This document shows positions 30,783 through 35,318 of a stretch of DNA of 64,000 bases, piece after piece. Origin of the DNA: Acidobacteriota bacterium (GTDB lineage Bacteria; Acidobacteriota; Vicinamibacteria; Marinacidobacterales; Marinacidobacteraceae). The notes below the pieces were generated by a model. That model was not told the origin of the DNA. It saw only the letters and a list, made by a program, of their open reading frames with translations, and made no database searches. The position numbers and the translations under genes were made by a program. The stretch lies in assembly GCA_022826195.1 (NCBI GenBank), contig JAJDVI010000062.1, positions 1-64,000 on the forward strand, given 5' to 3'. Numbering within the stretch: the stretch's first letter is position 1; each line of letters starts with the position of its first letter.

Positions 30783-32129
30783 TCAGTCCGTGACGACGGG
30801 GAGTTTCGGGAACGTCTCCCAGCCGCCGCGGGTGAAGTCCGGGAAGTCCATCGGCCGGCTGCGGTCCGCGACCGAGCGCTCGCTGAGGTCGGTGACCGCG
30901 GAGAGCGCCGCCGCGTCGTAGACGTTCATCTCGGTGGGCAGCCCCTCCTGGAGGCAGCGGATCAGCCGGTAGTCCTCGAGGTAGTCCATCCGCCCGTGTC
31001 CGAGTTCCTCGCCGGGGCTCGCGACGTTTTGCCAGAGCGGGTGCGCGTACTCCTCGTACCAGGCCTCGGCGTCGTCCCAGCGGTGCGACTCGCTCCGGCC
31101 CTCCACGTAGACCCGGTTCGGGTAGCCGTGGAAGATGCCCCGGGTCCCCTGGACCAGGTTGATCCGGCTGTAGGGACGGGGCAGGTTCGTGTCGTGGACC
31201 ACGGTGATCGTCCGGCCCAACGCCGTCTTGATGAGGCTCAGGTTGACGTCGCCCAGCGTGAACCGCTCGGACCGCTGGGGCGCGTCCTCCGGGAAGTGTT
31301 CCCGGGCGTAGTCCTGAAGGCCACGTGACGGTCCGCTCATCGAGACCAGGTAGTCGAAGCGGTCGCCGCGGCCGATGTCCATGCAGTTCGCCACCGGGCC
31401 GAGCCCGTGCGTCGGGTAGAGGTTGGCGTTCCGGGTGCGCGAGTGCGCCCGCCGCCAGAGACCCTCGCCGCGGTTCGAGAACTTCACGCCGCGAAGGTCG
31501 TGGAGGTAGCCGCCCTCGGCGTGGAGCACCTCGCCGAAGACTCCCAGCCGGACCAGGTGGAACACCATCATTTCCCACCGGCCGTAGTTGCAGTTCTCCA
31601 TCATCACGCAGTGCCGTCCGGTGCGTTCCGCGGTCTCGACGAGCCGCCAGCACTCGTCGATCGTGGTCGCCGCCGGCACCTCGGTGGCCGCGTGCTTGCC
31701 GTTTTCCATCGCCGCGACGCACACCGGGACGTGGAAACGCCAGGGCGTGGCGGTGAAGACGAGGTCGAGTTCCTCCTCGGCGCACATGCGCTCGTAGTCC
31801 CGTTCTCCCCGGGTGTAGAGCGTCGGGTCGGCGCCGCCGGCCTCCCGGATGAAGTCCCGGGCCCGCTCGGCGTGCTCGGGCCGGATGTCGCAGACCGCCC
31901 GGATCTCGACTCCGGGAGACGCTTCGTTCACTGCGAGCAGGTTGCGGACGTGGACCGTCCCCATGCCGCCCACGCCGACGAAGCCGATGCGGACGTTCGG
32001 GACCTTCGGCGCGGCAAGAAGACCGGTTGGCGTCGCCTGGACGCCCGCGAGCGCGGGGCCGGCGGCCGCCGCTCCCGCTCCCGCGGCCAGCAGTTGCCGG
32101 CGGGTCAGTCCGGATCGCTTCTCGGTCAT
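30783..32129 (-). CDS. Gfo/Idh/MocA-family oxidoreductase, GH109-like, Tat-exported
   Basis: A 448-residue protein with a twin-arginine signal (LTRRQLLAAGAGAAAAG, residues 8-24). The NAD(P)-binding fold begins RIGFVGVGGMGTVH. CNYGRWEMM and LHAEGGYLHDLRG resemble the GH109 branch, whose characterised member is an alpha-N-acetylgalactosaminidase that uses tightly bound NAD+. A secreted glycosidase or sugar oxidoreductase role is likely. The ATG overlaps the stop codon of the upstream MerB-like gene (ATGA), so the two are coupled. It is the third gene of a minus-strand operon with the flavoprotein and the lyase. Confidence 0.88.
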   Translation of the reverse strand: MTEKRSGLTRRQLLAAGAGAAAAGPALAGVQATPTGLLAAPKVPNVRIGFVGVGGMGTVHVRNLLAVNEASPGVEIRAVCDIRPEHAERARDFIREAGGADPTLYTRGERDYERMCAEEELDLVFTATPWRFHVPVCVAAMENGKHAATEVPAATTIDECWRLVETAERTGRHCVMMENCNYGRWEMMVFHLVRLGVFGEVLHAEGGYLHDLRGVKFSNRGEGLWRRAHSRTRNANLYPTHGLGPVANCMDIGRGDRFDYLVSMSGPSRGLQDYAREHFPEDAPQRSERFTLGDVNLSLIKTALGRTITVVHDTNLPRPYSRINLVQGTRGIFHGYPNRVYVEGRSESHRWDDAEAWYEEYAHPLWQNVASPGEELGHGRMDYLEDYRLIRCLQEGLPTEMNVYDAAALSAVTDLSERSVADRSRPMDFPDFTRGGWETFPKLPVVTD

Positions 32130-32809
32130 GGCGTTTGCTCCTGGCGGGGGACCGGGTCCCAGAAGGGGCTGGTCAGTCCCACGCCGGCGAAGATAGCGCG
32201 CGCCTCCCCGGGAGTGGGCCGCGGCGCTTCGGGGTCGAGCCGTGAGCCGTACCAGACCCGCGAGAGACGCCAAAGCTGGGGGACCGGCACCATCGGTCCC
32301 GCCTCGACGCCGCGCTCCCCGCACCAGGCGCGAAGATCGTCTTCCGACCGGAAGAACAACATGTTCGCTCAGGTAAAGACGATGTCGTCCCACCAACGGG
32401 CCGCGGGCACCAGCGAGTGGAAGAGCCAGTCACAGCGCTCCGGGCCGGCCTCGGTCACCTCGAGCCGCAGGGGTTCTCCGGAGTGCGCACAGCGCGACCG
32501 GACTGTCCCGGCCCGTCCGAGCGCCGCGGGGATCCCCAGCGCGTCCCACGCGCAGTTCGCGTAGTAGCGGACCCCCGCCGACTGGAAGGTGTGTTCCGTG
32601 GGAATCCCCGAGAAGGGATTGGCCATCCGGATCGAGACTCCATCCTCCCCGGTGACGATCGCCCGTTCCTCGCGGAGGCGGTCCCAGGCCTCCAGGACCC
32701 GCTCCATCTCCGATCCCAGCCGCTCCGCGATCCCCGCGGGGGAGGGGGTGATTCCGGTTTCCGCGAAGGCAGTGAGGATCGCGGTCCTCACCCGCCTCTC
32801 GAACGTCAA
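32126..32809 (-). CDS. MerB-like organomercurial (alkylmercury) lyase, predicted selenoprotein with in-frame UGA
   Basis: A predicted 227-residue enzyme cleaving carbon-mercury bonds. The gene is split by one in-frame TGA (32369-32371, residue 147). The frame continues directly into conserved family sequence (NMLFFRSED, then QLWRLSRVWY and the terminal GLTSPFW). Catalytic residues match MerB: C86 and D89 in NCAWD for Cys96/Asp99, C107 for Cys117 at the same 21-residue spacing, and the UGA at the place of Cys159. A stem-loop with a GGUC loop follows (32330-32368), so Sec insertion is predicted. TTG 32809 is the likely start, 18 bases after the flavoprotein stop; GTG 32791 is an alternative. 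A plain nonsense mutation is the competing reading: two pieces, 32369 upward and 32126-32362. Confidence 0.85.
32330..32368 (-). promoter_or_regulatory. Predicted bacterial SECIS element
   Basis: It lies immediately downstream of the UGA, within the coding sequence. On the minus strand, a 5-bp lower stem GCGAA/TTCGC (32364-32368 with 32330-32334) encloses an internal loop and a perfect 6-bp upper stem TCTTCC/GGAAGA (32350-32355 with 32340-32345), capped by GGTC (32346-32349). The loop G-G-U starts 20 nt after the UGA, close to the fdhF SECIS of E. coli, whose apical loop is also GGUC-containing. SelB recognises such a loop to deliver Sec-tRNA. Confidence 0.8.
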
Positions 32810-32826: not shown

Positions 32827-34767
32827 TCAGTCCGCGGCCAGGATCTCTCCGACCGCCCGGTGCGCCTCCCGGATGGCGGCGTCGGTGTGCGGACTCGCCG
32901 CCGAGTCGGTCCCCGCGATGGCGATCCTCCCGAAGGGCTGCCGGGCGGGAATGTTCGGCCGGTCGTCCGGGGTCCCGAAGGACCACTCCGGGGGATCGAA
33001 GAGGGGGTTGTAGGAATAGGTGTAGCCGTGCGGCCAGCGGTTCACGGTGATCGCCGCGATGTCCCGCTGGTCGTCGAAGCCGCTCCGGCCGAGCATCCGG
33101 TTGAGCTGGTCGCGGATGTTGGCCTCCACCGTCTCGAAGGTGGTGTGGAGGAGCTCCATCCGGCCGATCCGGTGCTGCTCGCGCCGGGAGAGCCCGGGCT
33201 CGCACGGATACCGGTTCATCCGCACCACCAGCGGCTCATCCGGCGAGGTCGAGGTGCGGTAGTCGCCGAGCGCGAGCTGCGGAGCGAGCCCGATGGAGGT
33301 GTGGTAACCGCCGGGGGCCGCGATGGAAGAGACCCCGGCTTCGGTGAACGCGCGCCAGTTGTGGAGCAGCACGCTCGTGTACTGGAGCGGCGACTTCACC
33401 GGCCAGGAGAGCGCGTCCCGCTGGGCTTTCGGCAGTTCGGGAATCAGGTAGGGAATGATGTTGTGCCAGCACGCCAGGACGACCCTCCCGGCGGCCACGG
33501 TGCGCCCCCGGTCGTCCCGCACGTAGGTGACGCGGGCCGGGCCGTTCTCACCGGGCTCCACCCGGATGACCGTCGAGGACAGCCGGATCCGCGTCCGGTT
33601 CTCCGGCCGGTCGAGCATCCCGTAGTCGAGCGGCGCCATCACCACGTCTTCCATCGTGGATCCCGGGATGGCGCTCGGGATGAGCCCCCGCACCAGCAGC
33701 CGGGTGATCGTGGCGTTCCCGTCCGGGAAGTAGAGGTCCGGATCGCCCTCGTTCGCGCGGGCCTGGTTCTCCCGGCCGTGCTGGCCGCCCGGCTCGTCAG
33801 CGAGCGCCTCCGGCGGCGTCTCCGGAATCTTCATCCCCGAAAAGCCCGGCAACCCCTCTTCCCACGCGTAGCGGGCCGGGTAGGCGTCGATCCCGGTGCA
33901 GAAGAGGCCCTTGGGTTGGTGGTCGAAGAACCAGGCCACGCCGGGGTCGCACTTCGCGTGCTCGATCAGGAAATCCTGGTAGCTGATGGTGGCCAGGAAC
34001 GTCTTCTTTTCCGCCGGGGAGAGATCCGGGAGGTAGTCCGGCTGCCCGTCGGCATGGAGCCGGATCAGGTCGTTCCGCACCGCTTCCGGCATCGGCGAGT
34101 CGGCGAGGAACTCGGCGAGCGGCCGCCGTCCGGCTCCGGCCACCAACTGGTCCGTCCCCCAGGTCTCGCGGTCGAAGAACATGGCCCGCTGGAGGCCGAG
34201 GTTGCCGTAGGTGTCCGAGACCGCGGCGACGCTCTCGTAGTAGCGCTTCCGGTCGATCCCGATCTCCTTGAGCAGGCCCTCCGCGACCTCGCCGTACTGC
34301 GAGGGCGCCTCCACGTTCAGGGTGCCGCCGTTCATCAGGTAGGTGCGGCCGTCGAGCCGGAACTCGTTGCGCTTGGCGTGGCCGCCGAAGTCGTCGTGGT
34401 TGTCGAGGAGCAGGATGCGGGCATCCGGACCCGCCTGCTTCGCGAAGTAGTGCGCGGCGGCGAGCCCCGAGATGCCGGCGCCCACCACCACCAGGTCGTA
34501 CGTCTCGCCGGTGTCGGTCGCGGTCCACTCGCGGCCCTCGTGGGCGAACTGGTGGGCGACCTCGAACGAACCGTCGTGGGAGCCGCGCATCCCGGTGCGG
34601 AGCGGCGGGTAATCGGCCTCGCCGGCGCGATCGATCTCGGCCTGGAACTCCGGGACCTCGCGGCAGGCGAGGGCCGTCCCGGTCAGGGCGACCGGAACTC
34701 CCGAGAGGAAATCGCGGCGGCTGACGCCGTCTCCGAACGGGCGGTACGTCTTCTTCGGCGAGGTCAT
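32827..34767 (-). CDS. FAD-dependent amine oxidoreductase, spermidine-dehydrogenase-like, Tat-exported
   Basis: A 646-residue flavoprotein. Twin arginines in SRRDFLSG (residues 16-23) precede a hydrophobic stretch ending ALAC. DLVVVGAGISGLAAAHYF (from about residue 91) is the FAD Rossmann motif, followed by the ILLLDNHDDFGGHAKRNEF dimer-fold continuation. YPPLRTGMRGSHDGSFEVAH upstream of it is a segment I associate with the spermidine dehydrogenase (SpdH) group. The C-terminal IAGTDSAASPHTDAAIREAHRAVG closes the FAD site. A GGAGG ribosome site lies before the ATG. It is the first gene of the operon containing the MerB-like lyase. Confidence 0.85.
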   Translation of the reverse strand: MTSPKKTYRPFGDGVSRRDFLSGVPVALTGTALACREVPEFQAEIDRAGEADYPPLRTGMRGSHDGSFEVAHQFAHEGREWTATDTGETYDLVVVGAGISGLAAAHYFAKQAGPDARILLLDNHDDFGGHAKRNEFRLDGRTYLMNGGTLNVEAPSQYGEVAEGLLKEIGIDRKRYYESVAAVSDTYGNLGLQRAMFFDRETWGTDQLVAGAGRRPLAEFLADSPMPEAVRNDLIRLHADGQPDYLPDLSPAEKKTFLATISYQDFLIEHAKCDPGVAWFFDHQPKGLFCTGIDAYPARYAWEEGLPGFSGMKIPETPPEALADEPGGQHGRENQARANEGDPDLYFPDGNATITRLLVRGLIPSAIPGSTMEDVVMAPLDYGMLDRPENRTRIRLSSTVIRVEPGENGPARVTYVRDDRGRTVAAGRVVLACWHNIIPYLIPELPKAQRDALSWPVKSPLQYTSVLLHNWRAFTEAGVSSIAAPGGYHTSIGLAPQLALGDYRTSTSPDEPLVVRMNRYPCEPGLSRREQHRIGRMELLHTTFETVEANIRDQLNRMLGRSGFDDQRDIAAITVNRWPHGYTYSYNPLFDPPEWSFGTPDDRPNIPARQPFGRIAIAGTDSAASPHTDAAIREAHRAVGEILAAD

Positions 34768-34916
34768 GGTCGGGCCTCCGGTTGGCGTGCGGCGCCGCGT
34801 CCTCCGCAGGATAGGATCGGATGGCTGCCCTCGGCCGGCGGAAGGGACGAACACCGCTTGTACCACATTTGCCTCCGCCGCGGCGCTTCGCCGGCGGAGT
34901 TCCCGGCCTGGCACCC

Positions 34917-35318
34917 GTGACGCCGCTCCTGCCACCGGCGCCGTTCCCCACCCCGGGGAGCGAAGGCAAGTTCCGGCGCGTCCACGCGGTCGTCCGGCGG
35001 GTCCCCCGCGGCCGGGTGACCACCTACGGACGGGTGGCGCGCGCGGTGACCGCCGCCGGGTACCCGCTCTCGGCGCGGGCGGCCGGGTGGGCGCTCCGGA
35101 ACTCCCCGGCGGGGGTTCCCTGGCACCGGGTGGTGAACGCCGAGGGGGCGCTTTCCGCCGAACTGAGCGGGAACTGCGAACCCGGCCGGCAGCGGGCGCT
35201 GCTTGCCCGGGAGGGCGTCCCCTTCGACGGTCGGGGCCGCGTGCTGCTCGACCGCTGCCTCTTCGATCCCACAGACTCGGACGCGTTCTTCTTCCCCGGC
35301 GGGGAACTCCCTCCGTGA
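34917..35318 (+). CDS. Alkyltransferase-like (ATL) DNA-repair protein, MGMT fold
   Basis: About 133 residues of the O6-alkylguanine-DNA alkyltransferase C-terminal fold: RVPRGRVTTYGRVA (recognition helix region) and VPWHRVV. The active-site Cys of PCHR is replaced by Trp (W69). That is the hallmark of ATL proteins, which bind O6-alkylguanine without repairing it and recruit nucleotide excision repair. GTG 34917 was chosen as the start; ATG 34821 would add a basic low-complexity tail. Its stop overlaps the start of the next gene (GTGA), so it may be cotranscribed with the glycosyltransferases. Confidence 0.85.
   Translation: MTPLLPPAPFPTPGSEGKFRRVHAVVRRVPRGRVTTYGRVARAVTAAGYPLSARAAGWALRNSPAGVPWHRVVNAEGALSAELSGNCEPGRQRALLAREGVPFDGRGRVLLDRCLFDPTDSDAFFFPGGELPP

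What the first reader, a model, noticed from the sequence alone, without database searches (positions are those of the whole stretch)
32126..32809. MerB-like organomercurial lyase with selenocysteine at the second catalytic cysteine
One in-frame TGA (32369-32371) interrupts an otherwise intact MerB-like frame. The residues after it continue conserved family sequence. Aligned by motif, C86/D89 match MerB Cys96/Asp99, C107 matches Cys117 at the same 21-residue spacing, and the UGA falls on Cys159 (40 versus 42 residues after Cys117). A stem-loop with lower stem GCGAA/TTCGC, upper stem TCTTCC/GGAAGA and GGUC loop begins right after the UGA; its loop G lies 20 nt downstream, the distance and loop type of the fdhF SECIS. 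Selenium binds mercury more strongly than sulfur, so a Sec-MerB would be chemically sensible. I cannot tell from here whether it has been described.
Basis: partly seen in the sequence, partly recalled or inferred. Interest (0 to 1): 0.95.

Follow-up and report, generated by a model that had tools for sequence, protein, structure and literature searches.

The report
Selenium version of mercury-splitting enzyme
A bacterial gene related to the enzyme that splits toxic organic mercury has a UGA codon exactly where that enzyme has a catalytic cysteine; the codon is very likely read as selenocysteine, which would make a selenium version of the enzyme, and the same arrangement is present in relatives from several bacterial phyla.

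Summary
Confirmed and enlarged. The gene (32126-32809, minus strand) encodes a MerB-fold protein whose one in-frame UGA (32369-32371) falls on MerB Cys159. Of 79 related loci, 69 have TGA, 3 TAG and 7 (archaeal) Cys there. The 3 TAG genes lie in Geodermatophilaceae, whose tRNASec has anticodon CUA; the 29 TGA hosts read have UCA. A GGUC-loop hairpin 20 nt downstream is conserved beyond coding need and covaries. The genome has selA, selB, selC and selD; SelA is in 42 of 43 UGA/UAG hosts sent and 0 of 7 Cys hosts. Sec decoding is near certain, by inference; cleavage of organomercurials is predicted and untested. A MerB-like selenoprotein (SaoL) is already in print, but this family fails the NCBIfam cut-offs for SaoL and MerB. 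Only 7 of 44 hosts have MerA over its cut-off. Unexpected extra: a second family in the same phylum with UGA at both Cys96 and Cys159 (7 copies in 6 genomes).

The parts
32126..32809 (-). MerB-fold gene, TTG start at 32809, 227 residues with residue 147 coded by UGA, TGA stop 32126-32128
   Evidence: PF03243 100.3 bits, cut-off 27; frame; start codon chosen by homology, not proven
32369..32371 (-). in-frame UGA, predicted Sec147, column of MerB Cys159
   Evidence: TGA/TAG in 72 of 79 loci
32340..32355 (-). apical SECIS-like hairpin, 6 bp in this sequence, loop GGUC at 32346-32349
32552..32554 (-). codon of Cys86, column of MerB Cys96
   Evidence: Cys in 54 of 54 rows
32543..32545 (-). codon of Asp89, column of MerB Asp99
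   Evidence: Asp in 52 of 54 rows, Cys in 2
32489..32491 (-). codon of Cys107, column of MerB Cys117
   Evidence: Cys in 45 of 54 rows
30783..32129 (-). downstream GFO/IDH/MocA-type oxidoreductase gene; its ATG overlaps the stop of the MerB-like gene (ATGA)
   Evidence: Pfam PF01408 and PF21252; overlap read
32827..34935 (-). upstream frame with an NAD/FAD-binding domain, same strand, ends 17 nt before the TTG
   Evidence: Pfam PF13450; frame

Best explanation
This is a MerB-fold gene in which a UGA codon stands in place of the codon for MerB's Cys159 and is very likely read as selenocysteine, so that the product would be a selenium-containing organomercurial lyase. Shown by sequence: UGA (UAG in three Geodermatophilaceae) at the Cys159 column, a conserved and covarying hairpin 20 nt after it, the Sec machinery in the genome, and a tRNASec anticodon that follows the codon. 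Inferred: SelB binds the hairpin and inserts Sec. Predicted and untested: Cys86 (Cys96) and Sec147 (Cys159) grip R-Hg+, Asp89 (Asp99) moves the proton, the C-Hg bond is cleaved by protonolysis and Hg(II) stays bound until handed on; Sec, ionised at neutral pH and with high affinity for mercury, would speed capture. As 37 of 44 hosts examined show no MerA over the cut-off, the Hg(II) would usually go to another thiol or selenol sink.
For: Fold and family. Catalytic columns kept. Stop codon at the same column in 72 of 79 loci, Cys in 7. TAG genes with CUA tRNASec in 3 of 3, TGA genes with UCA in 29 of 29. Hairpin: TCG 73/73 against 0.33, CGG 67/67 against 0.24; 28 double-change cells, 0 of 500 shuffles as high. 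Machinery. SelA in 42 of 43 UGA/UAG hosts sent and none of 7 Cys hosts. Purifying selection after the UGA.
Against: No protein evidence. No mer gene among neighbours scanned; MerA over the cut-off in only 7 of 44 hosts, not in this genome; the NCBIfam MerB cut-offs are not met (58.9 of 193 and 55.2 of 200). L157 has Trp at the column in a genome with SelA. Hairpin poor or changed in L089, L153 and L162. Cys117 column is not Cys in 9 of 54 rows. tRNASec over 60 bits was missed in 6 of 43 hosts.
Confidence: 0.82

Rival explanations
1. Same selenoprotein, but its substrate is not organic mercury: another organometallic or thiophilic compound, with Sec and Cys as metal or alkyl acceptors.
For: No mer neighbours, MerA over cut-off in 7 of 44 hosts, NCBIfam MerB cut-offs not met, SaoL is called organometallic lyase without a proven substrate (table passage of PMC13188914).
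Against: Cys96, Asp99 and Cys159 columns are kept and the fold match leads with mercury-bound MerB2 and MerB.
Confidence: 0.25
2. Pseudogene or sequencing error: the UGA ends a broken gene.
For: One in-frame stop; most databases show only the front part.
Against: Same codon in 72 of 79 loci from independent assemblies; open frame to a terminal stop in 67 of 67 UGA/UAG loci whose end is on the contig; dN/dS 0.10-0.29 after it; hairpin covariation.
Confidence: 0.01
3. The UGA is a regulated stop, and the front 146 residues are the working protein; the back part is a readthrough extension or relic.
For: Gene callers predict this product.
Against: The part after the UGA holds the end of the MerB domain, is under purifying selection and folds with confidence (pLDDT mostly over 90); the codon changes to UAG together with the tRNASec anticodon.
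Confidence: 0.03
4. UGA is read as Trp (code 4) in these organisms.
For: In the related two-UGA family, 20 of 120 listed database entries were called with Trp at both UGAs; L157 has TGG here.
Against: 29 of the 64 TGA-type loci whose end is on the contig end in TGA themselves; Cys is the usual alternative; hosts carry SelA and tRNASec; UAG replaces UGA where tRNASec is CUA.
Confidence: 0.01

Closest known systems
MerB organomercurial lyase (PF03243; PDB 3F0O, 3F2F, 3F2G)
   Different: Residue 159 coded by UGA with a hairpin; residue 160 is not Cys; NCBIfam MerB cut-offs not met; no mer operon seen
MerB2 (PDB 5C17)
   Different: MerB2 has Cys at 159 and Ser at the Asp99 column in the alignment
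SaoL, MerB-like organometallic lyase selenoprotein (NF040728; Haft and Gwadz 2023, not held, seen only in tables and references of PMC9312934 and PMC13188914)
   Same: MerB-like selenoprotein
UAG-coded selenocysteine with tRNASec-CUA (Mukai et al. 2016, not held; its host genera recalled)
   Same: tRNASec with CUA anticodon and UAG used for Sec in Geodermatophilaceae
   Different: Here a MerB-like gene is the target

Membership tests
Bacterial selenoprotein | UGA aligned with Cys in homologues | tested here: met
   7 of 7 non-stop loci have Cys; plasmid MerB and MerB-like rows have Cys; exception L157, Trp
Bacterial selenoprotein | SECIS-like stem-loop just after the UGA with a G at the start of the loop | tested here: met
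   consensus rules for bacterial SECIS are recalled
Bacterial selenoprotein | selA, selB, selC, selD in the genome | tested here: met
Bacterial selenoprotein | selenium found in the protein | not testable with these tools
   needs 75Se labelling or mass spectrometry
Pfam MerB family PF03243 | profile score over the curated cut-off | tested here: met
   100.3 bits, cut-off 27
MerB (catalytic residues; recalled as Cys96, Asp99, Cys159) | the three residues in their columns | tested here: met
   Cys, Asp and, with Sec for Cys, 159
NCBIfam MerB models NF009710 and NF033555 | score over the curated cut-off | tested here: not met
   58.9 of 193 and 55.2 of 200
MerB as part of a mer operon | mer genes beside it, MerA in the genome | tested here: not met
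   Ten neighbouring frames, Pfam only: no mer gene, eight frames without any match; best MerA score in the genome 314.9 of 454
Organomercurial lyase by activity | cleavage of C-Hg bonds | not testable with these tools
   enzyme assay needed
SaoL (NF040728) | score over the curated cut-off | tested here: not met
   41.9 of 140; best of the 48 members 65.6 bits, L086
SaoL (NF040728) | Cys-Sec (CU) motif as given in PMC13188914 | tested here: not met
   residue before the UGA is Thr in 73 of 73 rows
SaoL (NF040728) | SAO operon around it | tested here: inconclusive
   ten window frames scanned with Pfam only, two with a match

The most novel reading that the evidence does not exclude
Bacteria of at least eight phyla demethylate mercury with stand-alone selenoenzymes that gene callers have hidden as truncated proteins, mostly without MerA; in one branch both catalytic cysteines have become selenocysteine (UGA at Cys96 and at Cys159, each followed by its own hairpin), giving a two-selenium organomercurial lyase.
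Probability: 0.4. Interest if true: 0.88.

Novelty: new variant of a known kind. Interest (0 to 1): 0.77.

Why it matters
Removal of methylmercury is commonly judged from MerB proteins in databases. Of 4699 matches to this protein only the best 120 were looked at, and 118 of them are cut at the Sec codon, so candidate demethylases may be hidden or misnamed. Selenium at a mercury-binding catalytic residue would be a clean test of what selenocysteine buys an enzyme. The UAG/CUA pair in Geodermatophilaceae is a natural control, and the two-UGA family would be a rare enzyme with Sec at both catalytic ligands.

Full report
Observation. The gene lies on the minus strand, 32809 to 32126. Its frame is broken only by TGA at 32369-32371; 80 codons follow up to a TGA stop that overlaps the ATG of the next gene. 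The product matches PF03243 at 100.3 bits (cut-off 27) and MerB chains of the PDB. In an alignment of 54 rows (window, 42 of the other 72 UGA/UAG loci, 5 of the 7 Cys loci, 6 plasmid MerB or MerB-like rows), Cys96 column: 54 Cys; Asp99 column: 52 Asp, 2 Cys; Cys117 column: 45 Cys; Cys159 column: Cys or the UGA/UAG in 54. HMMER puts the UGA residue on Cys159 of MerB.

Relatives. A scan of one genome for each of 84,980 species kept 79 distinct loci. The patterns came from six stretches of the protein, one of which ends just before the UGA, so the sample leans to close kin. At the codon: 69 TGA, 3 TAG, 7 TGC; with the window 73 stop-codon rows. The 7 Cys loci are archaeal by title. Of the 72 UGA/UAG loci, 67 reach a terminal stop on the contig, 67 to 118 codons from the UGA, and 5 run off the contig. 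Database proteins: 4699 matched, 120 listed; 118 end at the residue before the UGA, while P0070 ends otherwise and P0071 (199 residues, disturbed just there) runs on. In 396 genomes drawn from the window's own phylum, 21 had a match: 15 genomes carry the one-TGA form, checked in the column. Against it: L157 (G217) has TGG with Ser in the Cys96 column, in a genome that has SelA. L158 and L159 have Cys and a second Cys at the Asp99 column; the weaker matches L160 and L166 have Cys.

Codon and tRNA. Geodermatophilus saharensis (L040), Blastococcus capsensis (L050) and B. saxobsidens (L060) have TAG. Their tRNASec genes score 65-66 bits to RF01852 and carry anticodon CTA, for which ARAGORN names them tRNA-Pyl. 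Twenty-eight other hosts and the window's genome (L133) have TCA. Codon and anticodon agree in all 32 genomes where both were read. The three TAG rows form one clade, so this is one switch, not three. Their genes end in TGA. UAG recoding of Sec in nature was reported by Mukai et al. 2016, seen only as a reference (not held); that it covers these genera is recalled.

Hairpin. In 86 rows (window, 71 loci, 14 of the phylum survey) a 7-pair helix with loop GGUC (79 rows; AGUC 6, GUUC 1) starts its loop 20 nt after the stop codon. It is 94.3% paired with 28 double-change cells; none of 500 shuffles reached any of the five measures, and slid versions pair at 49-67%. With the first 72 rows alone, 4 and 14 of 500 shuffles reached two of the measures. 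Codon choice is frozen: TCG 73 of 73 against 0.33 elsewhere in the genes, CGG 67 of 67 Arg codons against 0.24. None of the six Cys loci readable there has CGGTCG. L089, L153 and L162 have a poor or changed helix. For single sequences the fold is only modestly better than shuffles (window z -2.2; L040, L043, L084 and L085 between 0 and -1.1), so the case rests on comparison.

Machinery. G000 (93% complete) has selB 300 bits (cut-off 242), selA 409 (22.8), tRNASec 69.7 (47) and selD 246 (125). SelA: over 190 bits in 42 of 43, the other (G016) an end piece of 22 bits; at most 30 bits in the 7. tRNASec: over 60 bits in 37 of 43, a further 3 at 48-50 bits that may be tRNA-Ser; none of the 7 over the cut-off. 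In the phylum sample all 15 UGA-form genomes have SelA against 252 of 396 overall (Fisher p 0.0015, relatedness ignored).

Context and function. No neighbour family is shared across phyla beyond a common ABC ATPase. Of ten neighbouring frames in the window two match Pfam (an NAD/FAD-binding protein and a GFO/IDH/MocA oxidoreductase); eight, some of them probably shadow frames, match nothing. Ten frames near five other loci gave no mer gene. MerA passes its cut-off in 7 of 44 UGA/UAG hosts, G000 not among them. Cleavage of C-Hg bonds is therefore inferred from fold and residues only. The favoured mechanism follows MerB (roles of Cys96, Asp99 and Cys159 recalled), with Sec as the stronger mercury ligand and nucleophile.

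Known or new. A MerB-like selenoprotein is in print: table passages of PMC9312934, PMC13188914 (SaoL, NF040728, motif CU; SAO operon) and PMC7435645 (Organic mercuric lyase MerB2). The source, Haft and Gwadz 2023, is not held. The present family fails NF040728 (41.9 of 140) and both MerB models; the best E-values over the 48 members (1e-20, 4.9e-18, 5.7e-18) are those of L086, which scores 74 of 193, 65.6 of 140 and 65.3 of 200. So the kind is known; this is a separate variant with UGA at the Cys159 column in eight bacterial phyla by row label, not covered by NCBIfam of June 2026, and the two-UGA form has no match in the papers searched.

Noticed in passing
L167 (253-882, minus), L169, L170, L171, L172, L173, L178; partial L174, L175: A second MerB-like family in the same phylum with two in-frame UGAs, at the Cys96 and the Cys159 columns, each followed by a hairpin; database entries are cut at the first UGA or carry Trp at both.
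   Followed up: partly
L040, L050, L060 with tRNA loci L128, L129, L130: Geodermatophilaceae: Sec codon of the MerB-like gene is TAG and tRNASec has anticodon CTA, which ARAGORN names tRNA-Pyl.
   Followed up: yes
L157 (G217): A family member with TGG (Trp) at the Sec column and an altered Cys96 region, in a genome that has SelA; perhaps a decayed or changed paralogue.
   Followed up: no
G022:C27:19421-20776 and G034:C130:8890-10224: MerA-like flavoprotein frames with one in-frame TGA each, the first about 6 kb from a MerA over the cut-off; Sec forms or broken genes.
   Followed up: no
L136 (Paraburkholderia plasmid), L141 (Sphingomonas plasmid), L158, L159: MerB-like proteins with Cys-x-Trp-Cys in place of Cys96-x-x-Asp99 and Cys at the 159 column.
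   Followed up: no
L051 and L080: Nocardioides sp. zg-1230 shows the same frames around its Sec MerB-like gene on two scaffolds, which looks like a duplicated region.
   Followed up: no
tree: Chloroflexota, Planctomycetota, Verrucomicrobiota and Acidobacteriota rows of the Sec form are interleaved, which suggests horizontal transfer.
   Followed up: no
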